Part shown: one piece after another, positions 45,206 to 64,000 of the stretch
How the letters are laid out: every line of letters begins with the position of its first letter
How positions within the stretch are numbered: the stretch's first letter is position 1
Origin: a virus
Strand: one strand, 5' to 3'
DNA: 64,000 nt
Virus record (IMG/VR): IMGVR_UViG_3300031787_000060
Span: 16,801-80,800 of that record
Translations under genes and position numbers: made by a program
Notes under the pieces: generated by a model
What the model was told of the DNA's origin: nothing
Database searches by the model: none
Seen by the model: the letters and a program-made list of their open reading frames with translations, nothing else

Positions 45206-46210
45206 ATGAGTTTAGTAACAATAGATAGTTTGGGAGGAACACCTCCTTATGTTATTTCAGTTTGTGATATATTTCAATATTCTTGTCAAACTGTGACAAC
45301 TATATATGATTATATTCCACCATCTGTTAGTTTTAATATTCCGAGTCCATATTCATCGGCACCAAAAGTTTTAATTAAAATAGTTGATTCAACAGGATGT
45401 GTTTTTACACAAGAATATATATGTGTAACACCAACACCAACACCAAGTATTACTCCAAGTGTTACTCCAACAATTTCTTTAACTCCGTCAAATACTCCAA
45501 CACCAAGTATCACTCCATCATTTACACCGACACCGAGTATAACACCAAGTATTACACCTACACAAACAGTTACACCATCTCATACCCCAACTCAGACAAT
45601 TACTCCAACTGTTACAAGAACCCCTACTCCAACTGTGACACCTGAAACTCCTATTTACGCTTATTTATTCATTGAACCGTATTCAGGTTCATCAAGTATT
45701 GGTTCATACATGAACTCACTTGGCTCAAGTTTTTATGGGTTTACAAATACTACACAACCGAGTAGTTCAGCGAGTACATTTGATTTGGACATGAATAAAT
45801 ATGTTAATTTTTCGGGATGGACAACAGGATTGTTTCCAAGTATTATAAAACAAATTGTGCCAGGAACAAGTGGGGGATTTGATACATATGGTAATCCGTA
45901 TATTCGATATAATTTCCCAACAGTTAAAGTACCTGAAAATACTATTGGATGTAAAGCATGGTACACTTGGATAATACCGACTAATTTAACAAATAACCAA
46001 TATCAGATTGAGATTGATTTAGGAATTGTAAATCCAAATGTCTTTACAAGTGTAAAGATGGAACCGACAATTTATACTAATACATTTACTTATACGGGTA
46101 ATACTATTGCAAAAACAACTTATAGAGTTTATACTACATACCCATCAAATACATTTGAATTGGATAATACTTACGACCTTTATTTTAGAGGAAGTAAGGT
46201 TGATATATAA
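45206..46210 (+). CDS. Tail fibre protein with Pro-Thr linker, copy 1 (334 aa)
   Basis: Residues 1-73 resemble half of an SprB-like module ([31 protein letters not shown]). Residues about 75-147 are a Pro/Thr/Ser linker ([19 protein letters not shown] and similar). The C-terminal about 185 residues form a globular domain starting [20 protein letters not shown]. That domain and the linker are paralogous to the 401-aa protein at 58434 (YAYVFAEP, then a MNKY-x-x-x-SG pair in both: [12 protein letters not shown] and YMMNKYASYSG). It is followed by the collagen-like fibre gene in both places, so the pair forms a duplicated cassette. Pro-Thr linkers are extended and could be O-glycosylated. Confidence 0.75.
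45428..45650 (+). repeat. Pro-Thr-rich coding repeat (TPTPSITP type)
   Basis: About 74 codons of imperfect TPTPS/ITPT units. The same type of linker recurs at 51303-51460 and 58866-58998. The first and last share the 19-residue stretch [19 protein letters not shown] but with many synonymous differences. Confidence 0.8.
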
Positions 46211-46219
46211 TTATAGTAA

Positions 46220-49200
46220 ATGAGTTTCCCATATAAAAACCCAATATCATCTATCCAAGCAAATGGAACACAAACTGTACCAAGAAACAATACGTATGGT
46301 ACTACTTTCAGTGTTAATAATACGGGTGGTTACATGGAGGTGTTCAGTTTATCTGACCTCTATTATACAATACCATCAGGTACCACGGGAAGTATTGAAT
46401 ATTCGGGTAATACTATTCCTATTGAGTTTACAAAAGGAACGGGAGATGCTTGGTCACCTGATGTAATTACTTTGGCTTCAGATAACATCTCATCAGGTAG
46501 AAGACGACTTGGTATGTTGGCTTATGTTTATGAGGTTGACCAAGTTTATCAATACCATATTAATGATTACGAGACGTTATTTAATGCTGCGACTGCTAGT
46601 ACGGGATGTGCTCAGGTTTCTAATTTTGGAACAACAATAAATAATAAAACGGCTGCGGGTCAGTCGTTTATTAATTCTTGGACGGCTAACACTATTGAAG
46701 ATGTTAGTGGGGCAACATATACTACTGCGGTATGGAGAAAGTTTGTAACGGGTTCGTCAGGTGGTGTTACGGGAGCGAATGCTTATGGTTCATTCTATGA
46801 TACTTCAGGACAAACCGCTTCTTTGATTAATACCGCTTATCCAATGAGGTTAAATAGTGTCGCTGAGGCTAGTGGTATCACAATTGTTTCGGGTAGTCAG
46901 ATTACTTTCGCAAGTGCGGGAACATATGACATCCAATTTTCAGTTCAATTAAGTAATAATGGAGGTGGTGGTTCGGGTGAAGATGTTGATATATGGTTAA
47001 GGCAAAATGGTGTTGACGTTCCTTATACTGATACTCAAGTTACAGTTCAAACTAATAATAGATATGTTGTTGCGGCTTGGGACTTCTTGGTTACAGTTAC
47101 CGCTGGAACATATGTTGAATTAATGTGGGCGACAGATAATACTAATATATCTTTATATGCTCAGGCGGCAACTGCGTTACATCCGGCAATCCCTTCTTTG
47201 ATTGTTACAGTTATTCCTGTTAATGGTGGAGGTGGAGGTACTGGTACAAATGGTAGTTCAGGTTCATCAGGTAGTAGTGGGTCATCAGGAAGTTCTGGTA
47301 CATCGGGTACTTCAGGTCCAACAGGTTCTCCGGGTTCTTCTGGTAGTTCAGGAAGTAGTGGTATATCAGGAAACGCTATATCGATTTATAACGAAGGTAG
47401 TTTATTAACATCAGGGGTAACATCTATTGATTTTGTTGGCTCAGGTGTTAATGCAACAGGAGGTCCTGCGGTTACAGTTACCATACCAGGTGGTGGAGGT
47501 GTTAGTGGTGATTACTTACCATTAACTGGTGGAACTGTTTATGGTAATACTTATTTTACAAGCGGATTAACCGCTAGTACTTTAACTGTTACAGGTTTAA
47601 CTCAGACTAGTGGGATAACATCTACAGGTGGTATCACATTTCCTCAAAAAACCGTTACTAGTACATATAATATTACACCTTCAGATTATATGGTGGACAT
47701 TACTGGTGGTACCTTTAATGTACAATTACCAACCGCAGTTGGTATTCAAGGTCGACTATTAGCTATCAAAAATAATGGTGGAGGTGCGGTAACTATTCTA
47801 CCCTATGGGAGTGAAAAGATTGACGATAAAACTTTATTAATTCTAAGTGAAACAAACGCCGCACAACTTGTGAGTAATGGTTCTCAATGGGTAATTTTAG
47901 GACAAGATAGAAGTACTGTTAATAACTCAACAGGTGTATTTGTATTTACAGGATTATCAATTGTATCCACAACAACGTTTAGAGTTGCACCTGTTAAAGG
48001 GTGGATAGTTGATGATACAACAAATCCATTAAGTCCTCAAATCTATTATGTTGATTATAGTGGTGGTACTCATACTGCAATATATGTTAATACTGATACT
48101 GAGACTTGGGTATATCTTACAAGTGGGTCGACTATTGCTCAATCAAATATTGAACTAACGGAACAACAAAGAAGACAAAATATATTTTTAGGTAAATTAG
48201 GTCATGCAAACAAAACAAATATTATTAACGCGTTCAGTCAACCTGATTTTGTACTATCTCCATTAGCTCAACTCAGGGACATGTTTGTTCCTATTAATCT
48301 TATAAATGGTGGAATATATCCGTCAGCTAATGGTGTTAATTTAAGTTTTAATACAAGTGCAGGATATCTTTATGGTTTAGGTATTAATTTTGCGTCAAGT
48401 ACACTAACTCCAAACGCGTTATATGTTACAGGTACAAGTCCTTGTACTTTTCAATATCGAACACAAACAGGTGGTACCGCATCAAATACAACATTTATTG
48501 ACCCGTTAAATTATGATGTTGGTGGAGTTGTTACTCCTCTTACAGGAACAAAGGCAACCAACCAAAGAATTTATTTGGTTCAAAATGGTCAATTTAGAGT
48601 TCAATATGGTCAAACAGAATATAATCAGTTATCTGCAGCAATCGCTGGTCTTGCAACTGAACAATTTAATACGTTTAGTAATTTTACAAGTAATGGTATT
48701 TTAATTGGTGTTTTATCAGTTGTAAGTACTGCAACTGATTTAAGTGATTCATCTAAAGCTCAATTCTTTTTTGCATCAAAATTTGGTGAAACTGTAGGTT
48801 CTGCGGGAGGTGTTGCGACAACTACATTACAACAAGCATATAACAACTCATCTGAACCAGAAATAACAACTAACTCAACTCTTGATGGAATTACTTTTAG
48901 AAGAGGTAGTGCGTCGGATGCCGACAATGTGTTAGTTATTCAAGATGGTTCAGGTATTGATAGAATTCATTTTAATGGTTCAGGTAGAACAACAACAAGT
49001 AGTTTAACTGTTACAGGAATTACAAGTTCAACAGGAAATACTCGTTATGTTGTTGTTGATACTAGTGGTAATACATATTATCAGACAGGTGGTGTTAACG
49101 GAACTTCAGGTACATCTGGAACTAGTGGTTCTTCGGGAAGTTCGGGCTCAAGTGGAAGTAGTGGGACATCAGGGTCTTCGGGTAGTTCAGGTACTAGTGG

Positions 49201-50332
49201 TAGTAGTGGTTCATCGGGTTCTTCAGGAACGTCAGGAAGTAGTGGTACCTCAGGTAATGGTGGTTCATCGGGAACAAGTGGTTTAGATGGGATAAGTGGA
49301 ACATCAGGTTCTTCAGGGTCAAGTGGAAGTAGTGGTACATCAGGTTCAAGAGGTTCTTCGGGTACATCAGGAACGAGTGGTAGCTCTGGTACGTCAGGTA
49401 GTTCTGGTACATCAGGTTCATCGGGTAGTTCAGGTTCTGCTGGAACATCAGGTACTGGATTTACTACAATTACAAGTCCGGGTAGTAATAGAATATTAAC
49501 ATCTGATGGAACAGCTAACGCTGCGGTTGCTCAAGCTAAAATGACTTTTGATGGAATTAAACTGGCGGTAACAGGTGATACAACAATTATTGGTTCCACG
49601 ACTATTACTGGTAATATAAGTACTACAGGTGTAACCTCTCTTGGTAACGGAACATTTACAAGGGCGGGGTCAGCTACTGGTGATGTTATTCTTGATAATA
49701 ATAGTACAGATACTCCGGGTGTTTTGTTTTATTATGCTAATAATTCAAACTATGGTATTGATAGTTGGAACGGTTCATTTGATGTTTTAAGTGGACAGTT
49801 AGTTCGTATCACAAATAAATTAAATGAAACTGGTGGGGCTGTAAAGATGGCCGTAGACACTTCAGGTAATGTGGTATTTACAGGATTTATAAAGGCTAAT
49901 GCATGGAGAGCCGGTCAGGTAATTAACGATATTATTTTGAGTAATACTGAGGTAACTGTTAGTACTACAACTATTGCTACCAGTACTTCGGATACTGATT
50001 TTGTTACTTATAGTTATACACCATTAAGTTCTACAAGTTATTTAGTGATACATTATCATTTAGCGGATTATAGTTTTGCTAGTGGTACAGGTAATGACTC
50101 ATATTTTTCTAGAATAAAAATTGATGGTAGTGAAATAACATATTCAAAACAAAGTACTGTAAATGGTAATCGTAGTGGTGTATTGTTTCCATTAACGGGA
50201 AGATATACTAACTCTAACACTACTGCAAAATCAGTAGTTGTTGCGTGTCGTAGAGATTCTGCGGATGATAGTATTACAATAGTAAATGGGGCTACATCAA
50301 TGTGGTTAAGAATAACAGAAGTTGCAAGATAA
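46220..50332 (+). CDS. Long tail fibre protein with Gly-Ser-Ser collagen-like shafts, copy 1 (1370 aa)
   Basis: The N-terminal domain (1-175: FPYKNPISSIQANGTQTVPR, SDNISSGRRRLGMLAYVYEV) is paralogous to that of the fibre at 59668 and probably attaches to the baseplate or adaptor. A beta domain follows (about 185-335, TNF/C1q-like appearance: AGTYDIQFSVQLSNNGGGGS). Then come a Gly-x-y repeat (345-385), a long beta-rich region with ITPSDYMVDITGGTFNVQLP, a second Gly-Ser/Thr-Ser repeat (961-1080), and a C-terminal domain with NVVFTGFIKANAWRAG and a final SMWLRITEVAR. Gly at every third position is collagen-like, but Pro is almost absent, while Ser and Thr fill the other positions. It overlaps the next gene by one base (TAATG). 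Confidence 0.8.
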   Translation: MSFPYKNPISSIQANGTQTVPRNNTYGTTFSVNNTGGYMEVFSLSDLYYTIPSGTTGSIEYSGNTIPIEFTKGTGDAWSPDVITLASDNISSGRRRLGMLAYVYEVDQVYQYHINDYETLFNAATASTGCAQVSNFGTTINNKTAAGQSFINSWTANTIEDVSGATYTTAVWRKFVTGSSGGVTGANAYGSFYDTSGQTASLINTAYPMRLNSVAEASGITIVSGSQITFASAGTYDIQFSVQLSNNGGGGSGEDVDIWLRQNGVDVPYTDTQVTVQTNNRYVVAAWDFLVTVTAGTYVELMWATDNTNISLYAQAATALHPAIPSLIVTVIPVNGGGGGTGTNGSSGSSGSSGSSGSSGTSGTSGPTGSPGSSGSSGSSGISGNAISIYNEGSLLTSGVTSIDFVGSGVNATGGPAVTVTIPGGGGVSGDYLPLTGGTVYGNTYFTSGLTASTLTVTGLTQTSGITSTGGITFPQKTVTSTYNITPSDYMVDITGGTFNVQLPTAVGIQGRLLAIKNNGGGAVTILPYGSEKIDDKTLLILSETNAAQLVSNGSQWVILGQDRSTVNNSTGVFVFTGLSIVSTTTFRVAPVKGWIVDDTTNPLSPQIYYVDYSGGTHTAIYVNTDTETWVYLTSGSTIAQSNIELTEQQRRQNIFLGKLGHANKTNIINAFSQPDFVLSPLAQLRDMFVPINLINGGIYPSANGVNLSFNTSAGYLYGLGINFASSTLTPNALYVTGTSPCTFQYRTQTGGTASNTTFIDPLNYDVGGVVTPLTGTKATNQRIYLVQNGQFRVQYGQTEYNQLSAAIAGLATEQFNTFSNFTSNGILIGVLSVVSTATDLSDSSKAQFFFASKFGETVGSAGGVATTTLQQAYNNSSEPEITTNSTLDGITFRRGSASDADNVLVIQDGSGIDRIHFNGSGRTTTSSLTVTGITSSTGNTRYVVVDTSGNTYYQTGGVNGTSGTSGTSGSSGSSGSSGSSGTSGSSGSSGTSGSSGSSGSSGTSGSSGTSGNGGSSGTSGLDGISGTSGSSGSSGSSGTSGSRGSSGTSGTSGSSGTSGSSGTSGSSGSSGSAGTSGTGFTTITSPGSNRILTSDGTANAAVAQAKMTFDGIKLAVTGDTTIIGSTTITGNISTTGVTSLGNGTFTRAGSATGDVILDNNSTDTPGVLFYYANNSNYGIDSWNGSFDVLSGQLVRITNKLNETGGAVKMAVDTSGNVVFTGFIKANAWRAGQVINDIILSNTEVTVSTTTIATSTSDTDFVTYSYTPLSSTSYLVIHYHLADYSFASGTGNDSYFSRIKIDGSEITYSKQSTVNGNRSGVLFPLTGRYTNSNTTAKSVVVACRRDSADDSITIVNGATSMWLRITEVAR
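47252..47373 (+). repeat. Gly-Ser-Ser triplet coding repeat, short
   Basis: About 40 codons of Gly-x-y triplets (GSSGSSGTSGTSGPTGSPG and similar) in the fibre gene; a 9-base periodicity with mixed synonymous codons. Confidence 0.85.
49100..49457 (+). repeat. Gly-Ser/Thr-Ser triplet coding repeat
   Basis: About 119 codons of Gly-x-y triplets, mostly GSS and GTS, with rare N, D, R and I substitutions, in the same fibre gene. Confidence 0.88.
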
Positions 50333-52149
50333 TGCCAATACCACCAAATAAAATAAAATACTCAACGTCCTTTCATCCTAATACGATTAAAGTTAAGGAT
50401 TGGGTTTTAGGTATTAATGAAGGTGCGGAATACGGGCCAACAAGTGTTACAGGATTTTGGAATTCTATTATACCACCATCAGGTGGTTATACCATGTATG
50501 GAAACAAGGCTGTTGCCGGACCATCCATAGTGGTTGCTCAAAACGACTCAGAACTTATTGGGTTTACTCAAGGATTTGCAGGTCAAACATTTAGTACCGC
50601 TAACGAAGCGTTAGGATGGTATACAGGTCAAACAGGACTTATTTGTGTTAACCTTGATTATCCTGATATTGTAACTAATGGATTAACATTATTACTTGAT
50701 GCTGGTTATGTTTCATCATATCCAAGAAGTGGTTCACGATGGGATGATTTAAGTTTTAGTGGTAACAACGGAACATTAATTAATACTCCGACATTCAGTT
50801 CAAGTAATAATGGATACCTTACATTTAACGGAAGTAATCAATATGTTAACGTTGCAGGTACTCCTGTTGGAATAACAGCATATACTAAAAACGTTTGGTT
50901 TTACCTAAACTCAACTGCTGATAACAACTTATTAAGTAGCGATACGGGTGGACACTTTATGTATTTTGCAGGTTCAAATAAATTATACTGTGGACACTCA
51001 AATTGGGGTAATTATGGTGTTTATCCCTCAACAACAAGTTTTAGTAATGGTGTTTGGTATAATGCATGTCTTACTTTTGACACAACAAATGGTTTCATTC
51101 TATATGTTAATGGTGTTCAGGATAGTACATATACTGCTCAAAAAACACCTGTAAGTGGTAATGGTTCTACAAGGATTGGTTCTTATGGCGCAGGAGGTAA
51201 TTTATTAAATGGTAGAGTTTCAATTGCAATGACTTACAATAGAGTTTTAAGTTCAACAGAAGTGTTAACAAACTTTAATTCATTTTCATCAAGATTTATT
51301 TCACCATCACCTACTCCAACTCCAACTAATACTCAAACTCCAACACCTTCAATAACACCAACAATTACACCTACTAACACTCAAACTAATACTCCAACAC
51401 CAACACAAACCCCAACAAATACAATTACACCAACACCAACAATTACTCCGTCATCAACAAGTGAGGGTGGGGTAATTAGTAGTAATTTATTTATGAAGTT
51501 AGATGCAACTAATTATGTTAGTGGTACTTGGACTGATGAAACGGGGAATGGGAATAACGCAACTATAAATGGTGCCACTTGGTTGTCTACTGACGGAGGT
51601 ATTTTTGATTTAAATGGGACTAGTAATACAATAAGTATACCTCATACTGCTAATCTTAGTTTAAATACTACAACCCAAAGAACAATACAAGTTTGGGTTA
51701 AATTTGACGTTTTACCTAGTTCAGGTCAACAAGTTCCGGTCTTTGGAAAACTATCCAGTTCATTTGGATTTGATGGGTATTGGGGTGGGTTATTCTCGAA
51801 TGCTGGCGTTGTGAGGGTAGTTACAAATGGAACGGGGGTTCAAAAAATATCCGACTCTACGTTAACCGTTTCAATTAATACTTGGTATTTATTTACATTT
51901 GTTTCACGAATTACCTCAACTGCTAATACCACCAAAGTGTATATTAATAATACCGAATATATAACAACCGCTCATGGTACTGATACATATAGTGAAACTA
52001 ACCCTCTTTATTTGGGTTACATTGGTACTGGTATATCATCACTTTATTTAAATGGTAAAATAGGTGCCTGTTATTTTTATACCACAGGATTAACCGCCAG
52101 TGATGTAACAACAAACTATAATAATACTAAATCAAAATATGGATTATAA
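50332..52149 (+). CDS. Fibre protein with two LamG/lectin-like domains (605 aa)
   Basis: The start at 50332 overlaps the upstream stop codon (TAATG); an ATG 30 bases earlier is not preferred. An N-terminal domain (about 1-110: VKDWVLGINEGAEYGPTSVT, NEALGWYTGQTGLICVN) is followed by two concanavalin-A/LamG-like beta-sandwiches. The first (about 120-320) has GLTLLLDAGYVSSYPRSGSR, WDDLSFSGNNGTL and GRVSIAMTYNRVLSSTEV. The second (about 380-605) has FMKLDATNYVSGTWTDETGN and GKIGACYFYTTGLTASDV. They are joined by a Pro-Thr linker (324-376). Such domains bind carbohydrates, so this is a likely receptor-binding tip component. Confidence 0.8.
   Translation: MPIPPNKIKYSTSFHPNTIKVKDWVLGINEGAEYGPTSVTGFWNSIIPPSGGYTMYGNKAVAGPSIVVAQNDSELIGFTQGFAGQTFSTANEALGWYTGQTGLICVNLDYPDIVTNGLTLLLDAGYVSSYPRSGSRWDDLSFSGNNGTLINTPTFSSSNNGYLTFNGSNQYVNVAGTPVGITAYTKNVWFYLNSTADNNLLSSDTGGHFMYFAGSNKLYCGHSNWGNYGVYPSTTSFSNGVWYNACLTFDTTNGFILYVNGVQDSTYTAQKTPVSGNGSTRIGSYGAGGNLLNGRVSIAMTYNRVLSSTEVLTNFNSFSSRFISPSPTPTPTNTQTPTPSITPTITPTNTQTNTPTPTQTPTNTITPTPTITPSSTSEGGVISSNLFMKLDATNYVSGTWTDETGNGNNATINGATWLSTDGGIFDLNGTSNTISIPHTANLSLNTTTQRTIQVWVKFDVLPSSGQQVPVFGKLSSSFGFDGYWGGLFSNAGVVRVVTNGTGVQKISDSTLTVSINTWYLFTFVSRITSTANTTKVYINNTEYITTAHGTDTYSETNPLYLGYIGTGISSLYLNGKIGACYFYTTGLTASDVTTNYNNTKSKYGL
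51303..51460 (+). repeat. Pro-Thr-rich coding repeat between two LamG-like domains
   Basis: About 52 codons of [17 protein letters not shown]-type sequence separate the two lectin-like domains. Confidence 0.8.
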
Positions 52150-52154: not shown

Positions 52155-52961
52155 ATGGCAACATCAAGACCCTTCGCATATAACACAGGTTCAACAATAT
52201 CAGGGACAGAACAAGTCGGAAGTATTGCTATTGGTACACCAACAAGTGGGTTTACATCCACAGGTTTAAGATGGTGGAATGGGCCTGATGAAGATTTGGG
52301 TTATGTGATTGCTCATACTGTTCCATCAGGAACACAACCAAATCCTGTTGGAGTTCCTGCTTATATTGGTTTTTGGAGAACATCAGGTAAGACAGATAAT
52401 AACTTTATTAGTTTGTCTCAGTACGTATCAAGTTTTACGGGAACACCACAAACATTTGCAAGTGCATCCGCGGCTAAAACATGGTTGAACTCATCAGGAT
52501 ATTGGACATCTTATGTTAGTTCATTTACTTATTATAGATGGCAAATAACTCAAACAAAGACATCGCCACCTGATGCTAATGCTGTACAGGCTGCTGAATT
52601 TGTTTTTAGGTTAAATGGTGTTGACCAAAGTATGACGGGTGTTACCGTTACAAATCCTGGTGGTAGTAATCCTGTAGGTGAAGAACCCTCAAAATTAATT
52701 GATGGTAATTTGGCAACAAAAGGATTAGATTTAAACTTTGTCTCAAACGGAAATGTTACTAATTTTATATTTCAGTTCTCAACTGCTAAAACATTTAATG
52801 GATATAGATGGGCTACCGCAAATGATGCTGAAAGTAGAGACCCTAAATCATGGACTATTGCGGGTAGTAATAATGGAACAACATGGACTACGCTACATAC
52901 TGTAAATAACTTTACTGCAACTGTTGCAAGACAAACATATCAAACTGCTCAAACTTATTAA
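52155..52961 (+). CDS. Fibre-tip protein with discoidin-like C-terminal domain (268 aa)
   Basis: The N-terminal half (RPFAYNTGSTISGTEQVGSI, RWWNGPDEDLGYVIAHTVPS) resembles a phage fibre-tip domain; a related phrase occurs in the preceding gene. The C-terminal half, from about residue 125, follows the discoidin/F5-8 type C pattern: SKLIDGNLATKGLDLNF, FIFQFSTAKTFNGYRWATAN, DAESRDPKSWTIAGSNNGT, TWTTLHTV. These jelly-roll domains bind sugars or lipid head groups. It lies 5 bases after the LamG-like gene and closes the first fibre set. The 53 bases after it contain no clear terminator. Confidence 0.75.
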   Translation: MATSRPFAYNTGSTISGTEQVGSIAIGTPTSGFTSTGLRWWNGPDEDLGYVIAHTVPSGTQPNPVGVPAYIGFWRTSGKTDNNFISLSQYVSSFTGTPQTFASASAAKTWLNSSGYWTSYVSSFTYYRWQITQTKTSPPDANAVQAAEFVFRLNGVDQSMTGVTVTNPGGSNPVGEEPSKLIDGNLATKGLDLNFVSNGNVTNFIFQFSTAKTFNGYRWATANDAESRDPKSWTIAGSNNGTTWTTLHTVNNFTATVARQTYQTAQTY

Positions 52962-53014
52962 TTTATTTCTTTAATTTTTATTTAAAATTAATACATTTTG
53001 GGTAAAACGTTTAC

Positions 53015-54259: not shown

Positions 54260-54262
54260 GAT

Positions 54263-56367: not shown

Positions 56368-58034
56368 GTAATATTACATTAGTTACAGGATTGTGGAATA
56401 TTGGTAGAGAAAACCTTGAAGAAGGTTGGTCTCGTTCTTTTTCACATTATTTAGAAAAATTTGAACAACTATTAAAGGTTGAGGAAAACTTAATAATTTT
56501 TGGTGAAAAAGAATTAGAGGATTTTGTTTGGGAAAGAAGAGACCAAAGTAATACTCAATTTATTTTAAGAGATAAGAGTTGGTTTGTTGAAAATGACTTT
56601 TATAATAAGATACAAGAAATTAGAAATAACCCTGAATGGTATAATCAATCAGGTTGGTTAAAAGAATCGACACAAGGTAGATTAGAAATGTATAATCCTC
56701 TTGTTATGTCTAAAATGTTTTTGTTAAACGACGCAAGGATTTTTGACAGATTTAATTCAGAGTTTTTATTTTGGATTGATGCTGGACTTACAAATACAGT
56801 TCATCCAGGATATTTCACACACGATAAGGTTTTAAATAATTTAAGTAAGTATATTGATAAGTTTACATTCGTTTGTTTCCCATATGACGCTAATAATGAG
56901 ATACACGGATTTTCATACCCAAAGATTAACGAATGGGCTGAAGATGATGTAAAGAAAGTTGCTCGTGGAGGATTTTTTGGTGGACCGAAAGAAACCATAT
57001 CACAGATGAATGGTGAATATTATAATCTATTGAATGATACACTATCGAGTGGGTACATGGGAACTGAGGAATCAATATTTTCAATAATGGTTTATAAGTT
57101 AAAAGAATATATAAATTATTTTGAAATCGATTATAACGGTTTATTTGGAAAATTCTTCGAAAATTTAAAAGATGATGTTTTAGTTAAAAAGACAGAGTTT
57201 GTTAAAATCCAAAACGATTTAGATATTGATAAAGTTGCGTTATATGTAATAACATTTAATTCACCAAAACAATTTGAAACATTAATTCAATCCATGATTG
57301 AATACGATAGAGATTTTTTAGATAAACCAAAAAAGTTTTTATTGGATAACTCAACCGACCTATCAACAACCGAAGAATATTTAAGACTTTGTAAAGAATA
57401 TGATTTTGAACATATTAAAAAAGATAATATAGGTATTACAGGTGGAAGACAATGGATTGCTGAACATTTTGATGAAACAGGGTTGGACTATATGTTATTT
57501 TTTGAGGACGACATGTTTTTTTACTCACAAAAAAATGAAGTGTGTAGAAATGGGTTTAATAGATATGTAAGTAATCTATATCAGAAAAGTTTAGAGATAG
57601 TTAATAAAGAAAACTTTGATTTCCTAAAATTAAATTTCACAGAATTTTATGGTGATAATAGTACACAATGGAGTTGGTATAATGTCCCACAAAATTTCAG
57701 AGAACAACATTGGCCAAAAAACCCAAGATTACCACAACATGGTTTAGACCCAAACGCACCAAAAACAAAGTTCAACGAGATAAAAACACATAAGGGTATT
57801 CCATATGCGTCAGGGGAAATTTATTTATGTAACTGGCCAATTATTCTTTCTAAAAGTGGGAGTTATAAATGTTATTTGGAGACAAAATATCAACACCCAT
57901 ATGAACAAACTTTGATGTCTCACAACTTCCAAAACACAATTAAAGGTAAGTTAAAACCTGGTATTTTACTACTCACACCTACCGAACATGATAGATTTGA
58001 ACATTATGATAGTAATTTAAGGAAAGAATGTTGA
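56364..58034 (+). CDS. Bifunctional glycosyltransferase: HtrL/YibB-like plus GT2-like domain (556 aa)
   Basis: Two domains are fused. Residues 1-280 are HtrL/YibB-like: TLVTGLWNIGRENLEEGWSR, NPLVMSKMFLLNDARIFDRF, LFWIDAGLTNTVHPGYF near 135, and GGFFGGPKETIS. Residues about 288-556 are GT2-like: DKVALYVITFNSPKQFETLI, then HIKKDNIGITGGRQWIAEHF and YMLFFEDDMFF with the EDD motif near 380. Later ASGEIYLCNWPIIL and a conserved HPYEQTLMSHNF region follow. The combination suggests sequential addition of two sugars. It ends the glycosyltransferase block, 29 bases before the second fibre set. Confidence 0.75.
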   Translation: MSNITLVTGLWNIGRENLEEGWSRSFSHYLEKFEQLLKVEENLIIFGEKELEDFVWERRDQSNTQFILRDKSWFVENDFYNKIQEIRNNPEWYNQSGWLKESTQGRLEMYNPLVMSKMFLLNDARIFDRFNSEFLFWIDAGLTNTVHPGYFTHDKVLNNLSKYIDKFTFVCFPYDANNEIHGFSYPKINEWAEDDVKKVARGGFFGGPKETISQMNGEYYNLLNDTLSSGYMGTEESIFSIMVYKLKEYINYFEIDYNGLFGKFFENLKDDVLVKKTEFVKIQNDLDIDKVALYVITFNSPKQFETLIQSMIEYDRDFLDKPKKFLLDNSTDLSTTEEYLRLCKEYDFEHIKKDNIGITGGRQWIAEHFDETGLDYMLFFEDDMFFYSQKNEVCRNGFNRYVSNLYQKSLEIVNKENFDFLKLNFTEFYGDNSTQWSWYNVPQNFREQHWPKNPRLPQHGLDPNAPKTKFNEIKTHKGIPYASGEIYLCNWPIILSKSGSYKCYLETKYQHPYEQTLMSHNFQNTIKGKLKPGILLLTPTEHDRFEHYDSNLRKEC

Positions 58035-58042: not shown

Positions 58043-58050
58043 TATTTATT
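58043..58050 (+). promoter_or_regulatory. TATTTATT box upstream of second fibre set
   Basis: TATTTATT ends 13 bases before the ATG at 58064, after the last glycosyltransferase gene. Confidence 0.45.
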
Positions 58051-58063
58051 TAAAAAACTATTA

Positions 58064-58432
58064 ATGGAATTTTTTATTAACAAAGGTGCAACACTACCTG
58101 TTCTTAAAATGCAAGTGGTTAAAGATGGTATTGCTGACATAACAGAGTTCATGTCAATAATCGAAAACTCGTTGATTTACTTTTCCATGATAGATGTTAA
58201 AACGGGAGCATATAAGATTCTGAATAAGAAAGGAGGGTTTGTTGAGAAGACATTTGTTGACCCAAACGCTGAGACAGAATATTATGTTTATTATAAATTC
58301 ACTTCAAGTGATACAAGTAGAGAAGGTCTTTATGAAGGGGAGTTTGTTTTTATTACTGATACAGGAACTTACATTTTACCAATCAGAGAAAAACTAACGA
58401 TAAAAATTGGTAATAGTTACGTATCTATCTAA
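58064..58432 (+). CDS. BppU-like N-terminal baseplate/fibre-attachment domain protein (122 aa)
   Basis: The whole protein is one domain of the type found at the N-terminus of baseplate upper proteins (BppU): FINKGATLPVLKMQVVKDG, a central YFSMIDVKTGAYKILNKKGG, and YYKFTSSDTSREGLYEGEF with a closing ILPIREKLTIKI. The next protein begins with a diverged copy of the same domain (FIKKNSTLPVFQVEVSKNG ... PLPEKLYISV). The two are tandem paralogues separated by one base. A role as fibre-to-baseplate adaptor is inferred from the domain. Confidence 0.7.
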   Translation: MEFFINKGATLPVLKMQVVKDGIADITEFMSIIENSLIYFSMIDVKTGAYKILNKKGGFVEKTFVDPNAETEYYVYYKFTSSDTSREGLYEGEFVFITDTGTYILPIREKLTIKIGNSYVSI

Positions 58433-58433
58433 T

Positions 58434-59639
58434 ATGGAATGGTTTATTAAGAAAAATTCAACGTTACCAGTTTTCCAAGTTGAGGTATCAAAAAACGGAA
58501 GAAGTGATTTTGGTTTAGATGAAAATATTTCGGGTAATACAATTTTAATTTCGGTATATGACGAAGTTAATAAAAAATATATTGTTGCATCCAAAGAATG
58601 TTATATTACAACAAGTGCGTCTACAGTAAATCCTTTAGATATTACTTATTATGTGAATTATCAATTCACAAGTAGAGAAACAAAAAATGAAGGTAAGTTT
58701 TTAGTTCAGTTTTTAAAACAGTCATCTCAGGGGATTGTTATCATACCGTTACCTGAAAAATTATATATAAGTGTTTTAAGTAGTTTTAGTTTAAATTCTT
58801 ACTCTTATCCGACTAATAATCCTTACATTATTGATAGACCATGTTGTAATGCGCCGGCTCTACCAGCGACACCAACACCGACACCATCAATTACCCCAAG
58901 TGTTACACCAACAATATCTCTTACACCAAGTGTTACACAAACTGTTACACCAACAGTTACTACAACACCAACATTTACTCCAACACCATCTATTACAAAA
59001 CCTTTGTATTATGCTTACGTATTTGCAGAACCTCAAGATTCTTCTGCAGGTGGTTCGTTGTTTGGATTAGGAAGTTATATGTATTACTTAGCGGATGGTG
59101 TAACACCTGACACTAATGTTAGTTGGTACGGATGGGGTAATTCAGGAGCGCTTCCATTACCAACAAGTCCAAATTACAGTTATATGATGAACAAATACGC
59201 ATCATACTCAGGATTTACAGGTGGAACAGGAAACTTTGTACAACCTACAAACTTAAAAGGTGCTTTAAATCAGTTCCCAAGTACGATTAAAGATAGTTTT
59301 GGATGTTTGATTAACCAATACACATTTGAAACTATTGAAGTTAATAATAGTGATATTAATACTAGTTTACAGTACATGTATACGATTTGGATACCACTTG
59401 ATGGTGTCGGAGGAACTTTGAATAATATGAGTGTAAATGTGGGCTATCAGTCACAACCTTGTGACTTTGACATTTTAGCAACTCCTGACCCTAAAATTTC
59501 GGTTGGGGATGTTATAACCTCAGGTGGTTCAATACCTGCGGGAACATATAGAATTTTATACTTATCTAATGACGGATTGTTACCACCAAAACTTCCTGAT
59601 AAAAATAATTACTACTTCAAAGGGGTATATAAAACCTAA
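58434..59639 (+). CDS. Tail fibre protein with BppU-like domain and Pro-Thr linker, copy 2 (401 aa)
   Basis: The start at 58434 follows the previous stop codon by one base; the ATG at 58407 would overlap the upstream gene and is rejected. Residues 1-120 are BppU-like, residues about 144-188 a Pro-Thr linker ([19 protein letters not shown], identical to 19 residues of copy 1), and the C-terminal about 210 residues a domain starting YAYVFAEPQDSSAGGSLFGL, paralogous to the end of the 334-aa protein at 45206. The N-terminal domains of the two copies differ (SprB-like there, BppU-like here), a clear sign of module exchange. It precedes the second collagen-like fibre gene. Confidence 0.75.
   Translation: MEWFIKKNSTLPVFQVEVSKNGRSDFGLDENISGNTILISVYDEVNKKYIVASKECYITTSASTVNPLDITYYVNYQFTSRETKNEGKFLVQFLKQSSQGIVIIPLPEKLYISVLSSFSLNSYSYPTNNPYIIDRPCCNAPALPATPTPTPSITPSVTPTISLTPSVTQTVTPTVTTTPTFTPTPSITKPLYYAYVFAEPQDSSAGGSLFGLGSYMYYLADGVTPDTNVSWYGWGNSGALPLPTSPNYSYMMNKYASYSGFTGGTGNFVQPTNLKGALNQFPSTIKDSFGCLINQYTFETIEVNNSDINTSLQYMYTIWIPLDGVGGTLNNMSVNVGYQSQPCDFDILATPDPKISVGDVITSGGSIPAGTYRILYLSNDGLLPPKLPDKNNYYFKGVYKT
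58866..58998 (+). repeat. Pro-Thr-rich coding repeat, copy 2
   Basis: About 44 codons of [12 protein letters not shown]-type sequence, protein-identical over 19 residues to the linker at 45428-45650 but synonymously diverged. Confidence 0.8.
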
Positions 59640-59667
59640 AAAAAGATAATTATTAGTAAGTAACAAA

Positions 59668-62600
59668 ATGGCAATACCGTATCAAAATCCAATAAGTGCG
59701 TCCCAAATAACAGGACCTTTCAGTGTAGCAAGAACAAGTCCATACGGAACCAACTTTAACGTCTTAAATGTTGGGGGTTGGCAAGAAGCCGCTTACCTTA
59801 CTAATTTAGGGTTGTCATTTAGTGGGAAGGGACAACAACAACTTAGTGCAAATACTATCCCAATTAATATCACAATTGGTAATGGTACATTTATGCCGAC
59901 TTATTTAACCCTTAACTCTGATAATTTTTCATCAGGTAGAAGAAGGTTAGGTATGATTGTTTGGGTTAATGAAACTGAAACGGCATACCAATTTCAAATA
60001 GACAACTATAACGATTTATGGGACGCTGCGGTAAGTGCTAATTCTGTTACTCAATTATCTTATGAGACAATTGTAAAAAATAATACACCTGAAGGACAGG
60101 CATTTATTAACGCTTGGACAGGTTCAACAATTGAAGGTGTTAGTGGAACATCAAGAAATGATGCGAGATGGAGAGTTTTTGCTCAAGGAACAGAATTAAC
60201 TGGTGGTACGTTCTTTTCAGGTACAAGCACTTTAGAATTATATAATAGTGATGGTACCGTTGTAAGTGTTACAGGTATTACCGTTTCAGGTGGTGATGGT
60301 ACTAGCGGTACGTCAGGGAGTTCAGGTTCCGCCGGTTCTTCAGGAAGTTCGGGTACATCGGGTAGCTCTGGCTCAAGTGGTAGTGCTGGAACAAGTGGTA
60401 TAAACGGTGTTGATGGTGCTAGTGGGACATCTGGTACATCTGGCTCAAGTGGATATAGTGGTAATGACGGTGCTAATAGCGGTAGATGGTTATGGACATC
60501 ATCTATAGTTACCCCAAATGACCCTAACCAAGGGTTTTTTGCAACAAACATTAATGAGTTATGTTCAGTAAATTATATATCTATTGCAGATAATGATGTT
60601 TATAATATTAATTATGATAATTGGTTAACCGCAATTCAAGATTCTATCAATTTAAGTCAAGAAGTTTATTTACAGATTGAAGAAGTTGGTAATTTTCCTA
60701 TATTAGGTATTTACAAAATTTTAACTATAGTTAATAATGGACCTTATTGGGATATTACTTTAGACATACCTTTTACTTGTAATGGTAATTTAACAAGTGG
60801 TAGCACATATACATTTTCTTGGATTCATAATGGAGCGGATGGTTCTTCAGGAAGTTCTGGTTCATCAGGTGAATCAGGAAGTTCTGGTACAAGTGGTAGT
60901 TCAGGAACATCAGGAAGTAGTGGTAGTGCTGGAACCTCAGGTTCAAGTGGTACCTCAGGTTCATCAGGAACAAGTGGTTCTTCAGGTAGCTCAGGTTCAT
61001 CTGGAACTTCAGGTACGTCTGGCTCATCAGGTAGTTCAGGCTCAAGTGGCTCATCGGGCTCAAGTGGTTCTTCGGGAAGTGTTGGAACTTCAGGAACATC
61101 TGGTTCTTCAGGTTCAAGTGGTTCTTCGGGAAGTGTTGGAACTTCAGGAACATCAGGGTCTTCAGGCTCTAGTGGTACATCAGGCTCTTCAGGTTCTAGT
61201 GGGTCAAGTGGTATTACTGGTAGTTCAGGTACATCAGGAAGTTCGGGCTCAAGTGGTTCTTCAGGAAGTACAGGTTCAAGTGGTACATCGGGTTCTTCGG
61301 GTTCTTCGGGTTCTTCGGGTTCTTCAGGCTCATCAGGGTCATCAGGTTCAAGTGGGTTAACAGGTTCTTCTGGTACATCAGGTAGTGCTGGTTCGTCAGG
61401 TTCAAGTGGAAGTACGGGTTCATCAGGAAGTTCAGGAATATCAGGTTCAAGTGGAAGTTCTGGAAGTAGTGGATTAACTGGAAGTTCAGGTACTAGCGGA
61501 ACGTCAGGTAGCACAGGTTCTTCAGGCACTAGTGGTAGTTCAGGAACGTCAGGTAGCACAGGTTCTTCGGGTTCATCGGGTAGTTCAGGTTTAACAGGTT
61601 CATCTGGAACATCTGGAAGTTCTGGTTCAAGTGGAAGTACGGGGTCATCAGGTAGTACAGGAACATCAGGTTCATCAGGCTCAAGTGGCAGTGCTGGTTC
61701 ATCAGGCTCAAGTGGAATAAGCGGTAGCTCAGGAACATCAGGTTCAAGCGGAAGTGCTGGTAGCTCAGGTTCAAGTGGTAGCTCTGGCTCTGCTGGAACT
61801 TCAGGTTCAAGTGGAACTTCAGGTTCAAGTGGGACATCAGGAAGTAGTGGAAGTACAGGTTCATCAGGAAGTTCTGGTGTTAATGGTTCTTCAGGGACAT
61901 CAGGTAGTACTGGTACATCTGGAACTTCTGGTAGTTCAGGTTCTTCAGGAAGTACAGGGTCTAGTGGTAGTAGTGGAAGTTCAGGACTAACTGGCTCTTC
62001 GGGAACATCAGGTTCTTCTGGTTCCTCAGGAAGTTCAGGTTCAAGTGGTATAACAGGTAGTTCAGGAACATCAGGTTCAAGTGGAAGCACAGGCTCTTCA
62101 GGAAGTTCTGGTTCTGCAGGAACATCAGGTTCAAGTGGAAGTACAGGCTCTTCAGGAAGTTCTGGTAGTGTTGGAACATCAGGTTCTTCGGGTTCAAGTG
62201 GTAGTTCTGGTTCTGTTGGTACTTCAGGAACTGCTGGTACAAGTGGCTCTTCAGGAAGTGCGGGGTCAAGTGGTAGTAGTGGTAGTTCAGGTAGTGTTGG
62301 AACATCGGGTTCTTCAGGTTTGAGTGGTGTTGACGGTACTAATGGTACTAGCGGAACTTCAGGTAATAGTGGTAGCTCAGGTACATCGGGGACAAGTGGT
62401 TCTTCAGGTTCTGCGGGTACATCAGGTAGTTCAGGTAGTTCAGGAACATCAGGTTCTGTGGGTACCTCAGGTAGTTCAGGTTCATCCGGAAGTACAGGTT
62501 CAAGTGGAACGTCTGGTTCTAGTGGTAGTGTCGGTACATCAGGGTCTTCAGGCTCGTCAGGTTCAAGTGGAAGTTCTGGAATAACAGGTTCTTCTGGTAC

Positions 62601-63555
62601 ATCTGGAACTTCAGGTTCTAGTGGTTCATCAGGAAGTTCAGGTTCTAGTGGTAGTTCAGGTAGTGTTGGTACATCGGGTTCTTCTGGTTCAAGTGGAAGT
62701 TCTGGCTCAACAGGTACTAGTGGAAGTTCTGGCTCAAGTGGAAGTACAGGTTCTAGTGGTACAAGTGGTTCATCTGGTAGTGTAGGAACTAGTGGTAGTA
62801 GTGGTTCTTCTGGTTCATCAGGAAGTTCAGGTTCTAGTGGTAGTTCTGGTTCTTCAGGTACATCAGGTAGTGTTGGTACTTCAGGGTCAAGTGGTTCTTC
62901 GGGTTTAACAGGGTCTTCAGGAACATCAGGTTCTAGCGGTTCATCTGGTTCAAGTGGAAGTGTTGGAACTTCTGGTACAAGTGGTTCATCAGGTAGTTCA
63001 GGTTCATCGGGTTCTACAGGAAGTTCTGGAACATCAGGAAGTAGCGGAAGTTCAGGCTCTTCAGGTCTAACTGGTTCTTCGGGAACAAGTGGAAGCTCAG
63101 GTAGTAGTGGTTCTGTTGGTACTTCAGGAAGTTCTGGTTCATCTGGTAGTGTTGGAACATCAGGTTCTTCAGGTTCAAGTGGTTCATCGGGTTCGGTTGG
63201 GACTTCAGGAAGTGCTGGTACAAGTGGCTCATCGGGTAGTTCAGGTTCATCGGGTTCTACAGGAAGTTCTGGAACATCTGGGTCAACAGGTACTTCAGGA
63301 AGTTCTGGTTCAAGTGGAAGTTCAGGTTCATCTGGAAGTAGCGGTAGTGTTGGGACTTCTGGCTCAAGTGGGTCTAGTGGTACTTCAGGTAGCACTGGGT
63401 CAAGTGGTTCATCGGGTTCTAGTGGAACATCAGGTTCATCAGGTAGTGCAGGCTCAAGTGGAAGTTCGGGGAGTACTGGAACATCAGGTAGTAGTGGTTC
63501 GGTAGGAACTTCAGGTTCTTGGGTAGTAGTGGAAGTTCTGGGTCTTCAGGTTTAA
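59668..63555 (+). CDS. Long tail fibre protein with giant Gly-Ser/Thr-Ser shaft, copy 2 (frame interrupted)
   Basis: Residues 1-180 (IPYQNPISASQITGPFSVAR, SDNFSSGRRRLGMIVWVNET) are paralogous to the N-terminal domain of the fibre at 46220. A Gly-x-y repeat (210-266) leads to a compact domain (about 270-389, SGRWLWTSSIVTPNDPNQGF, NGPYWDITLDIPFTC). From residue 392 the sequence is an almost unbroken Gly-Ser-Ser/Gly-Thr-Ser triplet repeat of about 890 residues. At 63520 the frame is lost: TCT TGG GTA replaces the expected TCT TCG GGT, giving a short aberrant tail and a stop codon at 63553. Restoring one C continues the repeat to the window end. The gene therefore probably extends beyond the window; whether the lesion is real or a sequence error is open. 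Confidence 0.75.
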   Translation: MAIPYQNPISASQITGPFSVARTSPYGTNFNVLNVGGWQEAAYLTNLGLSFSGKGQQQLSANTIPINITIGNGTFMPTYLTLNSDNFSSGRRRLGMIVWVNETETAYQFQIDNYNDLWDAAVSANSVTQLSYETIVKNNTPEGQAFINAWTGSTIEGVSGTSRNDARWRVFAQGTELTGGTFFSGTSTLELYNSDGTVVSVTGITVSGGDGTSGTSGSSGSAGSSGSSGTSGSSGSSGSAGTSGINGVDGASGTSGTSGSSGYSGNDGANSGRWLWTSSIVTPNDPNQGFFATNINELCSVNYISIADNDVYNINYDNWLTAIQDSINLSQEVYLQIEEVGNFPILGIYKILTIVNNGPYWDITLDIPFTCNGNLTSGSTYTFSWIHNGADGSSGSSGSSGESGSSGTSGSSGTSGSSGSAGTSGSSGTSGSSGTSGSSGSSGSSGTSGTSGSSGSSGSSGSSGSSGSSGSVGTSGTSGSSGSSGSSGSVGTSGTSGSSGSSGTSGSSGSSGSSGITGSSGTSGSSGSSGSSGSTGSSGTSGSSGSSGSSGSSGSSGSSGSSGLTGSSGTSGSAGSSGSSGSTGSSGSSGISGSSGSSGSSGLTGSSGTSGTSGSTGSSGTSGSSGTSGSTGSSGSSGSSGLTGSSGTSGSSGSSGSTGSSGSTGTSGSSGSSGSAGSSGSSGISGSSGTSGSSGSAGSSGSSGSSGSAGTSGSSGTSGSSGTSGSSGSTGSSGSSGVNGSSGTSGSTGTSGTSGSSGSSGSTGSSGSSGSSGLTGSSGTSGSSGSSGSSGSSGITGSSGTSGSSGSTGSSGSSGSAGTSGSSGSTGSSGSSGSVGTSGSSGSSGSSGSVGTSGTAGTSGSSGSAGSSGSSGSSGSVGTSGSSGLSGVDGTNGTSGTSGNSGSSGTSGTSGSSGSAGTSGSSGSSGTSGSVGTSGSSGSSGSTGSSGTSGSSGSVGTSGSSGSSGSSGSSGITGSSGTSGTSGSSGSSGSSGSSGSSGSVGTSGSSGSSGSSGSTGTSGSSGSSGSTGSSGTSGSSGSVGTSGSSGSSGSSGSSGSSGSSGSSGTSGSVGTSGSSGSSGLTGSSGTSGSSGSSGSSGSVGTSGTSGSSGSSGSSGSTGSSGTSGSSGSSGSSGLTGSSGTSGSSGSSGSVGTSGSSGSSGSVGTSGSSGSSGSSGSVGTSGSAGTSGSSGSSGSSGSTGSSGTSGSTGTSGSSGSSGSSGSSGSSGSVGTSGSSGSSGTSGSTGSSGSSGSSGTSGSSGSAGSSGSSGSTGTSGSSGSVGTSGSWVVVEVLGLQV
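60298..60465 (+). repeat. Gly-Ser/Thr-Ser triplet coding repeat, short proximal block
   Basis: About 56 codons of Gly-x-y triplets in the second fibre gene, before the globular insert at about 60476-60834. Confidence 0.85.
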
Positions 63556-64000
63556 CTGGCTCTTCTGGAACAAGTGGTAGTAGTGGAAGTTCAGGGTCAA
63601 CAGGTTCTTCAGGTTCAAGTGGCACATCAGGTAGTAGTGGTTCTTCGGGCTCTAGTGGTTCATCGGGTTCGGTTGGAACTTCGGGAAGTGCTGGTACAAG
63701 TGGTTCATCAGGAACTTCAGGGTCATCTGGGTCAACAGGTACTTCAGGAAGTTCTGGTTCAAGTGGTAGTGTAGGTACTTCTGGCTCAAGTGGAAGTAGC
63801 GGTAGTGTTGGAACTTCTGGCTCAAGTGGGTCTAGTGGAAGTTCAGGCTCTTCGGGATTAACTGGTTCATCAGGAACTTCAGGGTCATCAGGTTCAAGTG
63901 GAAGTAGCGGTTCTTCGGGTAGTACAGGAACATCTGGGTCAACTGGTACATCAGGTTCTTCTGGTTCAAGTGGAAGTAGTGGTAGTGTTGGTACAAGTGG
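60841..64000 (+). repeat. Giant Gly-x-y coding repeat (more than 3.1 kb) with 54-base higher-order units
   Basis: Over 1,050 codons of Gly triplets, mainly GSS and GTS with scattered GST, GSA, GSV, GLT and GIT. The basic period is 9 bases. Local tandem copies 54 bases apart (six triplets) are visible, for example starts at 61066 and 61120, and at 62065, 62119 and 62173. Larger near-duplicates link 63181-63380 with 63657-63840. Codons are mixed (TCA, TCT, AGT, TCG; GGT, GGA, GGC, GGG). The repeat runs off the window. Confidence 0.92.
63522..64000 (+). CDS. Continuation of the Gly-Ser/Thr-Ser fibre shaft in the shifted frame (partial)
   Basis: From 63522 the frame shifted by one base carries the same Gly-x-y repeat (GSSGSSGLTGSSGTSGSSG) without a stop codon to the last base of the window, about 159 codons. 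It has no start codon or initiation region of its own. It is best read as the rest of the fibre gene at 59668 after a one-base deletion near 63520. The C-terminal tip domain must lie outside the window. Confidence 0.7.

What the first reader, a model, noticed from the sequence alone, without database searches (positions are those of the whole stretch)
45206..64000. Glycosyltransferase block embedded between two Ser/Thr-rich fibre cassettes: possible self-glycosylating fibre system
Five consecutive glycosyltransferase-like genes (53015-58034) lie between two paralogous fibre sets. The fibre shafts are Gly-Ser/Thr-Ser repeats (over 1,000 residues in the second) plus Pro-Thr linkers, that is, long arrays of hydroxyl residues with almost no charge. 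The first enzyme is of the Gnt1 type, whose known members add GlcNAc to a protein hydroxyl. The simplest reading is that the phage O-glycosylates its own fibres, making a mucin-like shaft, to stiffen it, protect it from proteases or vary adsorption. The alternative is modification of host surface polysaccharide.
Basis: partly seen in the sequence, partly recalled or inferred. Interest (0 to 1): 0.82.

Follow-up and report, generated by a model that had tools for sequence, protein, structure and literature searches.

The report
Swappable virion sugar-coating gene cassette
A large phage carries, inside its tail-fibre genes, a set of sugar-adding enzymes whose first member looks like the enzymes that start mucin sugar coats in animals; it most likely sugar-coats threonine-proline stretches of the phage's own tail proteins, and near-identical phages swap the middle enzymes as a block, which would change the coat.

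Summary
The gene block is real. Five genes (53015-58034) sit between two fibre sets of a T4-like phage contig. Relatives show a fixed plan: the first enzyme (GT1, Pfam PF11397) and the last (GT5, HtrL_YibB plus a second GT-A domain) stay, the genes between change: 29 line-ups in 50 non-redundant loci. Near-identical phages swap this interior cleanly at gene ends.

Gly-X-X shafts lie near GT1 in 12 of 80 relatives; 0 of 38 Gly-Ser-Ser records hold PF11397. Thr-Pro linkers fit better: near GT1 in 70 of 80 loci, beside GT1 in some bacteria, and in 3 of 3 cultured phages with GT1 but 0 of 12 without. Against this, 13 of 13 cassette-free relatives have such linkers too.

GT1's predicted fold is closest to polypeptide GalNAc-transferases, which start mucin-type O-glycosylation. 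Its nearest cultured relative is in phage XacN1, which also has GT5, Thr-Pro proteins and reported virion glycoproteins (PMC5852040, passages).

Best reading: a modular, mucin-like O-glycosylation system for virion proteins. Acceptor and sugar are inferred, not shown.

The parts
45206..46210 (+). fibA1: fibre protein with Thr-Pro tract (residues 74-125, about 45425-45580); candidate acceptor
46220..50332 (+). fibA2: fibre with 162 residues of Gly-X-X shaft
50302..52149 (+). Laminin_G_3/ConA-like lectin-domain protein with Thr-Pro tract (residues 321-387, about 51262-51462); candidate acceptor
   Evidence: Pfam E 4.7e-26
52155..52961 (+). tip protein: N-terminal 120 residues conserved, C-terminal domain (F5/8 type C, 26.9 bits, under the cut-off of 28.2) swapped in near relatives
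53015..54259 (+). GT1: PF11397 glycosyltransferase, predicted fold closest to polypeptide GalNAc-transferases; proposed initiating enzyme, conserved left bookend
54263..54973 (+). interior cassette gene GT2: family unassigned, DxD-like motif by eye
54948..55811 (+). interior cassette gene GT3: HtrL-like by profile comparison
55804..56367 (+). interior cassette gene GT4: GT family 2, marginal
56364..58034 (+). GT5: HtrL_YibB half plus second GT-A-like half; conserved right bookend
58064..58432 (+). small gene found in 61 of 80 GT1 loci, downstream of GT5; function unknown
58407..59639 (+). fibB1: paralogous fibre protein with Thr-Pro tract (residues 148-200, about 58848-59006); candidate acceptor
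59668..64000 (+). fibB2: Gly-X-X shaft (957 residues in the first open frame), cut by the contig end and by a frame break near 63520

Best explanation
The block is a phage-encoded, mucin-like O-glycosylation system for the phage's own tail proteins. GT1, which has the predicted fold of polypeptide GalNAc-transferases, puts the first sugar (identity unknown) on Thr/Ser of Thr-Pro linkers as tail proteins accumulate in the host cytoplasm. The interior enzymes extend or cap the glycan. GT5, with two GT-A domains, adds a conserved step. Swapping the interior as a block changes the glycan without touching the start and the conserved step, much as capsule or O-antigen loci change serotype. Shown here: gene plan, conserved bookends, clean interior swaps, fold similarity, and Thr-Pro proteins beside or together with GT1 in other lineages. 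Reported by others: glycoproteins in XacN1 virions. Inferred: acceptor, sugar, order of action, benefit.
For: GT1 model (pLDDT 82.5): the first 22 Foldseek PDB hits are all polypeptide GalNAc-transferases, best E 7e-11; VIA ranks 1-29 are all of that family at Z 19.0-22.2, the next chain at 16.7. D92, H94, E205 and H229 are invariant in 25 homologues; D-S-H at 92-94 resembles that family's DxH motif (recalled). GT5 lies downstream in 76 of 80 GT1 loci. After removing near-duplicates, 50 loci show 29 interior line-ups; GT1 and GT5 identities correlate at r 0.69, GT1 identity and interior sharing at 0.32. L006 against the window: 94.6% up to 54259, then 92.1% from 56361, with no blastn match to the window's interior in L005, L006 or L007. 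Interior families with a Pfam name include fucosyltransferases GT10 and GT11, GT25, sugar-type methyltransferases, UDP-GlcNAc 2-epimerase, DegT aminotransferase and UDP-galactopyranose mutase. Thr-Pro tracts: 70 of 80 GT1 loci, and 7 of the 9 further records searched whole. PF11397 in 16 of 43 Thr-Pro records, 0 of 38 Gly-Ser-Ser records. A Thr-Pro protein directly beside GT1 in 6 of 78 bacterial-genome loci (L423, L430, L441, L451, L478, L479) and, by other scans, in L424 and L481; in L423, L424, L430 and L441 it carries a twin-arginine-like leader by eye. XacN1 has GT1 (47%), GT5 (42%) and 13 Thr-Pro CDS in the 250 of 385 kb scanned. TPTxTPT pattern in 3 of 3 cultured phages with GT1, 0 of 12 large phages without (GT1 status). 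Virion glycoproteins of XacN1: PMC5852040, passages read.
Against: Thr-Pro linkers do not need the cassette: with the second marker all 23 of 23 records have them, 10 with and 13 without PF11397; with the wedge marker 8 of 8 with and 7 of 11 without. In G088 (185 kb, no PF11397) the fibre cluster has Thr-Pro tracts but no enzyme block. So within the T4-like lineage the link could be shared ancestry. In the bacterial set 72 of 78 loci have no Thr-Pro neighbour by the automatic test (p 0.015 against genes farther off), and L451's tract is Pro-Glu rich in a GC-rich frame. The three cultured GT1 phages are related, so they count as one case, and the 12 controls are remote (terminase 32-38% identical) and partly of the same genera. 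The four interior families I call c0, c1, c3 and c4, among the largest, have no Pfam match, so not every interior gene is shown to be a sugar enzyme. No sequence-level hit links GT1 to GalNAc-transferases. The XacN1 passages do not say which proteins are glycosylated. A fold does not show the acceptor.
Confidence: 0.6

Rival explanations
1. The enzymes glycosylate the Gly-Ser/Thr-Ser (Gly-X-X) shafts.
For: The shafts are long, flank the block, and hold 95 + 577 Ser/Thr in Gly-X-X runs. GT5's two-domain Foldseek hits include the collagen enzymes LH3 and COLGALT1, and mimivirus R699.
Against: Shafts near GT1 in 12 of 80 loci only, 11 of them with GT1 at least 96% identical to the window's; PF11397 in 0 of 38 Gly-Ser-Ser records (no control genome rang in that call, but the same query found matches) and no GT1-GT5 relative in any of 80 Gly-Ser-Ser loci. 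The LH3/R699 alignments have rmsd 16-17 A over both domains and no lead over generic GT-A enzymes.
Confidence: 0.12
2. The enzymes alter host surface polysaccharide, for example to block superinfection or help release.
For: HtrL_YibB is named from an LPS-core gene region (recalled); GT25 (described in Pfam as LPS biosynthesis), fucosyltransferase and sugar-nucleotide genes in the interiors also fit surface polysaccharide; a cell homologue of GT1 sits in a glycan gene cluster.
Against: The block lies inside the tail-fibre gene run, all on one strand; Thr-Pro proteins recur beside GT1 in some cells. Flippases, ligases and membrane segments were not searched for.
Confidence: 0.17
3. The enzymes glycosylate phage DNA.
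For: GT5's C-terminal half has weak TAGT (E 0.0027, under cut-off) and phrog_842 HMC-glucosyltransferase hits (E 2e-5).
Against: No Tet_JBP gene in 18 large GT1 records (the control genomes were silent too, so weak). dCMP hydroxymethylase was not searched. Location in the tail block and sugar-type methyltransferases in the interiors do not suggest DNA.
Confidence: 0.04

Closest known systems
Polypeptide GalNAc-transferases (mucin-type O-glycosylation initiators, GT27)
   Same: Predicted fold of GT1 (Z 19.0-22.2); D-S-H motif (family motif recalled); Thr-Pro-rich partner proteins
   Different: About 10-14% identity over the aligned part, no sequence hit; donor and acceptor untested; C-terminal part not compared in detail
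Pfam GlcNAc family PF11397 (Skp1 Gnt1 type)
   Same: GT1 is a member by score (231.4 bits, cut-off 21)
   Different: Gnt1 modifies hydroxyproline (recalled); a 2OG-Fe oxygenase of the PF13640 family was found in 1 of 19 records
Virion glycoproteins of phage XacN1
   Same: Same GT1-GT5 pair and Thr-Pro proteins; at least two glycoproteins reported by proteomics (PMC5852040, passages read)
   Different: The block is not inside a fibre gene run; the passages name two glycosyltransferases (ORF328, ORF334) and mention neither Thr-Pro tracts nor the GT5 homologue
Mycobacteriophage capsid and tail-tube glycosylation
   Same: Glycans on virion proteins of phages with own glycosyltransferases (as cited in PMC12619734, passages read; the primary paper was not held); an F1 phage genome table lists an HtrL/YibB protein (PMC10453261, passages read)
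   Different: Other phages and virion parts; no Thr-Pro partner or swappable interior known to me
Moraphages (jumbo phages with predicted Bacteroidota hosts)
   Same: Four core gene families are putative glycosyltransferases (PMC12619734, passages read)
   Different: Target not determined in the passages; homology to this block not tested; host of the window's phage not determined here
Recombining gene variants in cryoconite phage pan-genomes
   Same: Near-identical phages exchange gene variants, tail fibres above all, with glycosyltransferases among the listed types (6 hits; PMC7468147, passages read)
   Different: There read as superimmunity or anti-restriction; no conserved pair of enzymes around a swapped block in the passages

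Membership tests
Pfam PF11397 (GlcNAc) | Score above curated cut-off | tested here: met
   GT1: 231.4 bits against 21
GT27 polypeptide GalNAc-transferase | GT-A catalytic fold of this family | tested here: met
   Ranks 1-29 in VIA, clear gap to the next; predicted model
GT27 polypeptide GalNAc-transferase | Sequence homology to known members | tested here: not met
   No PDB sequence at E up to 10 with the 25-row profile
GT27 polypeptide GalNAc-transferase | DxH metal-binding motif | tested here: met
   D92 and H94 invariant in 25 homologues; family motif recalled, structural equivalence of the residues not checked
GT27 polypeptide GalNAc-transferase | C-terminal ricin-type lectin domain | tested here: inconclusive
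   GT1 residues 324-414 are strand-rich in the model; not folded or searched alone
GT27 polypeptide GalNAc-transferase | Transfers GalNAc to peptide Thr/Ser | not testable with these tools
   Needs enzyme assay
HtrL_YibB (PF09612) | Score above curated cut-off | tested here: met
   GT5 N-terminal half: 50.6 bits against 24.1
TAGT / phage DNA glucosyltransferase | Score above curated cut-off | tested here: not met
   GT5: 18.1 bits against 27.5
TAGT / phage DNA glucosyltransferase | Tet/JBP oxygenase in the genome | tested here: inconclusive
   0 of 18 large records, but control genomes silent
Collagen-like Gly-X-X fibre | Runs of eight or more Gly-X-X triplets | tested here: met
   fibA2 162 and fibB2 957 residues
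Phage virion glycosylation system | Glycans on virion proteins made by phage enzymes | not testable with these tools
   Glycoproteins reported for relative XacN1, maker not shown (PMC5852040, passages read)

The most novel reading that the evidence does not exclude
Phages of at least two unrelated lineages, and some bacteria, share a mucin-like O-glycosylation system: a GalNAc-transferase-like initiator and a conserved HtrL double enzyme act on Thr-Pro tracts, and phages exchange the enzymes between them as a block, giving virions a switchable glycan 'serotype'.
Probability: 0.5. Interest if true: 0.86.

Novelty: new variant of a known kind. Interest (0 to 1): 0.74.

Why it matters
Virion glycosylation is described as rarely identified in phages (PMC5852040, passages read). 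If this reading holds, the capacity is common in one large viral-contig collection (400 relatives of GT1), begins with an enzyme shaped like those that start animal mucins, and is modular, so virion surface sugars could be exchanged like capsule types. That would bear on phage adsorption, evasion of surface defences, antibody recognition of phages, and enzymes for making O-glycosylated proteins in bacteria.

Tried and rejected
Gly-Ser-Ser shaft as acceptor: rejected as the main one. Thr-Pro co-occurrence inside the T4-like lineage as proof: rejected as a test, since cassette-free relatives have the linkers too. Collagen-type acceptor from GT5's LH3/R699 hits: rejected, no lead over generic GT-A folds. 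Hydroxyproline acceptor as in Gnt1: PF13640 in 1 of 19 records, so not favoured. PDB sequence search for GT1 found nothing. GT2 profile against GT5 found nothing. Scan of 395 genomes of one class: six match at E 0.001 or better, four over the cut-off, only the centre genome strongly, so the gene is rare in those cells. Literature: ten searches, judged by titles and abstract starts, listed no paper on Thr-Pro linker glycosylation in phages or on this cassette; the library holds open-licence papers only.

Rows dropped before counts: Thr-Pro and Gly-Ser-Ser samples were cut to records of 30 kb or more (43 and 38 of 80 loci each; L132 shares a record with L115; L089, found by both scans, was counted with Thr-Pro only). 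Wedge-marker records: 19 of 80 loci tested. Second marker: 23 of 80 loci, those with about 19 kb or more downstream, 8 of them the window's own close relatives. Control phages: 12 picked by hand from 40 listed rows of 2489 matching records; three are Asteriusvirus and two Wroclawvirus. The 80 GT1 loci hold near-duplicates, so counts over 80 are not independent; many are fragments, so absences there are weak. Only the first 25 of 65 Pfam families matched by the interior genes were shown.
Full report
WHAT IS THERE. The window is bases 16801-80800 of an 80.8-kb viral contig classed as linear. It encodes a T4-like myovirus: tail sheath, tube, baseplate parts, UvsX-like recombinase, DnaB-like helicase and ribonucleotide reductase. 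GT1 (53015-54259) is a PF11397 glycosyltransferase at 231 bits, and matches phrog_24687. GT5 (56364-58034) is HtrL_YibB plus a second GT-A-like half. Between them, GT4 is a marginal GT2-family protein, GT3 is HtrL-like by profile comparison, and GT2 stays unassigned. On both sides are fibre proteins with Gly-X-X shafts and with Thr-Pro tracts of 52-67 residues.

A FIXED FRAME WITH A CHANGING MIDDLE. GT1 relatives are common in viral contigs: 400 found, the best 80 kept, all at least 76% identical. These 80 include near-duplicates. In 76 of 80 loci GT5 follows on the same strand, and 61 of 80 also have the small gene 58064-58432. What lies between GT1 and GT5 varies. Of the 76 loci, 50 remain after near-duplicates are removed, with 29 line-ups; 73 protein families occur in all. 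Among pairs with GT1 at 95% identity or more, 17 of 31 have the same interior families and 7 share none. Families with a Pfam name include GT25, GT10/GT11 fucosyltransferases, FkbM and other methyltransferases, UDP-GlcNAc 2-epimerase, a DegT aminotransferase and UDP-galactopyranose mutase. This is what a glycan-building cassette would hold. But c0, c1, c3 and c4, among the largest families, have no Pfam match; c4 is the GT3 type, which is HtrL-like by profile.

CLEAN SWAPS. Between the window and L006, DNA identity is 94.6% from 52155 to 54259 (the end of GT1), then 92.1% from 56361 (just before the start of GT5). The window's interior has no blastn match in L005, L006 or L007, and in L005 and L007 the break points fall within a few bases of the same places. 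The tip protein just upstream (52155-52961) also swaps its C-terminal domain. Tip type A occurs with interior type A (window, L004) and B (L006); tip type B with interior A (L008, L010, L014) and B (L005, L007). All four combinations exist, so tip and glycan cassette recombine independently.

WHAT GT1 LOOKS LIKE. An AlphaFold2 model from a 25-row alignment (mean pLDDT 82.5) was compared with the PDB. The first 22 Foldseek hits are polypeptide GalNAc-transferases, the best at E 7e-11. With VIA-align the first 29 entries are of that family, Z 19.0-22.2 over 261-311 residues at rmsd 3.2-6.6 A, and the next is at 16.7. Several of these structures hold peptides such as EA2 or Muc5AC (titles; that these are Thr-Pro rich is recalled). 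There is no sequence-level match, so this is likeness of fold, not family membership. GT5's model gives no such lead: its VIA hits are a mix of GT-A enzymes, and the LH3 and R699 alignments over two domains have rmsd of 16-17 A.

WHICH PROTEIN IS THE ACCEPTOR? (1) Gly-X-X shafts are near GT1 in 12 of 80 loci, 11 of which have GT1 at least 96% identical to the window's. In a scan for Gly-Ser-Ser shafts made without regard to enzymes, none of 80 loci has a GT1-GT5 relative and none of 38 records of 30 kb or more has PF11397 (no control genome rang there, but the same query finds matches). (2) Thr-Pro tracts are within the held flanks in 70 of 80 GT1 loci; of the other ten, nine records were searched whole and seven are positive, the two misses being 24- and 20-kb fragments; the tenth is a 7.8-kb fragment that was not searched. 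In the matching Thr-Pro scan, 7 of 80 loci hold GT1 or GT5 relatives and 16 of 43 records hold PF11397. In the phage loci the gene directly left of GT1 has a Thr-Pro tract in 37 of 78 cases, the gene directly right in 0 of 80; adjacent genes overall 37 of 158, against 62 of 731 for genes three to eight places away.

A CONTROL THAT WENT AGAINST ME. Records picked by a neutral marker of the same phage lineage show Thr-Pro tracts with or without the cassette. With the wedge gene: 8 of 8 with PF11397, 7 of 11 without. With gene 39130 and enough downstream DNA: 10 of 10 with, 13 of 13 without. In 20-kb stretches of the fibre region fetched from cassette-free records, tblastn with the window and cassette proteins found fibre genes but no cassette gene, and the 16 proteins scanned from G088, G126, G131 and G133 gave no glycosyltransferase family. 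So Thr-Pro linkers are general in this lineage, and co-occurrence within it proves nothing.

INDEPENDENT LINEAGES. Two comparisons escape that problem. First, bacteria: 78 genome loci encode GT1 relatives; some may be viral contigs binned with bacteria. By the automatic test 6 of 78 have a Thr-Pro protein as direct neighbour (L423, L430, L441, L451, L478, L479); adjacent genes 6 of 148, against 5 of 544 farther off (p 0.015). L451's tract is Pro-Glu rich and the least clear; L479's is a long Thr-Pro repeat. L424 and L481 were missed by that test and do have one. In Jiulongibacter sediminis (record titled as a strain), the Thr-Pro protein is about 150-200 bases from GT1, in a stretch with UDP-glucose dehydrogenase, an epimerase, a carbamoyltransferase, a FkbM methyltransferase fused to HtrL, and a second PF11397 gene. 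In four loci (L423, L424, L430, L441) the Thr-Pro protein starts with a twin-arginine-like leader, judged by eye. Such proteins are exported after folding (general knowledge), which would fit glycosylation in the cytoplasm.

Second, cultured phages. Of 50,697 phage records only three have a GT1 relative at E 0.001: Xanthomonas phage XacN1 and Stenotrophomonas phages CM1 and RAS14. XacN1 has GT1 (ORF334), a carbamoyltransferase like that of Jiulongibacter (48%), two genes related to interior families c0 and c1 (33% and 31%), and GT5 (ORF330, 42% over 555 residues). RAS14 has the same set without the c1-like gene. In the 250 of 385 kb of XacN1 that I read, 13 annotated CDS have strong Thr-Pro tracts; several lie next to baseplate, sheath or other structural genes. 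The TPTxTPT pattern occurs 51, 22 and 22 times in the three phages with GT1 and not once in 12 large phages picked from the terminase matches. These three are related, so they are one independent case, and the 12 are remote relatives (terminase 32-38% identical). The XacN1 paper reports at least two glycoproteins by proteomic analysis and suggests the phage's own glycosyltransferases may have made them (PMC5852040, passages read). The passages do not say which proteins, and the supplementary figure was not seen.

VERDICT. The most likely function is O-glycosylation of virion proteins, with Thr-Pro linkers as the main acceptor (0.6). Host surface modification remains possible (0.17), the Gly-Ser shaft as acceptor 0.12, DNA 0.04. 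Glycosylated phage virions are known, and exchange of gene variants between near-identical phages is known (PMC7468147, passages read), so this is a new variant of a known kind. What is new, as far as the ten searches show, is the GalNAc-transferase-like initiator, the Thr-Pro partner across lineages, and the swappable interior between two conserved enzymes.

Noticed in passing
window 63480-63555: The open frame of the second Gly-X-X shaft breaks here by a one-base length difference; two near-identical records (L002, L003) have an unbroken frame. Assembly error or real frameshift not decided.
   Followed up: partly
window 52155-52961: Tip protein with conserved first 120 residues and at least three dissimilar C-terminal domains among near-identical phages; one looks PA14-like by eye.
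   Followed up: partly
L021, L041, L049, L067, L078: GT5 is about 780-795 residues here, with an extra N-terminal part; in Jiulongibacter (L430) the matching protein is a FkbM methyltransferase fused to HtrL.
   Followed up: no
L430 2943-13139: Jiulongibacter sediminis: a compact glycan cluster around a Thr-Pro protein and two PF11397 genes; possible cellular version of the system.
   Followed up: partly
L601-L605 (phage XacN1): 13 CDS with long Thr-Pro tracts, including the 3313-residue ORF325 and ORF384; the paper reports no tail fibres.
   Followed up: partly
L417 (G088) 18443-19696: Divergent beta-propeller (DUF5122) gene after the fibre cluster in a cassette-free relative, with Thr-Pro pattern hits on that strand in and beside it.
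   Followed up: no
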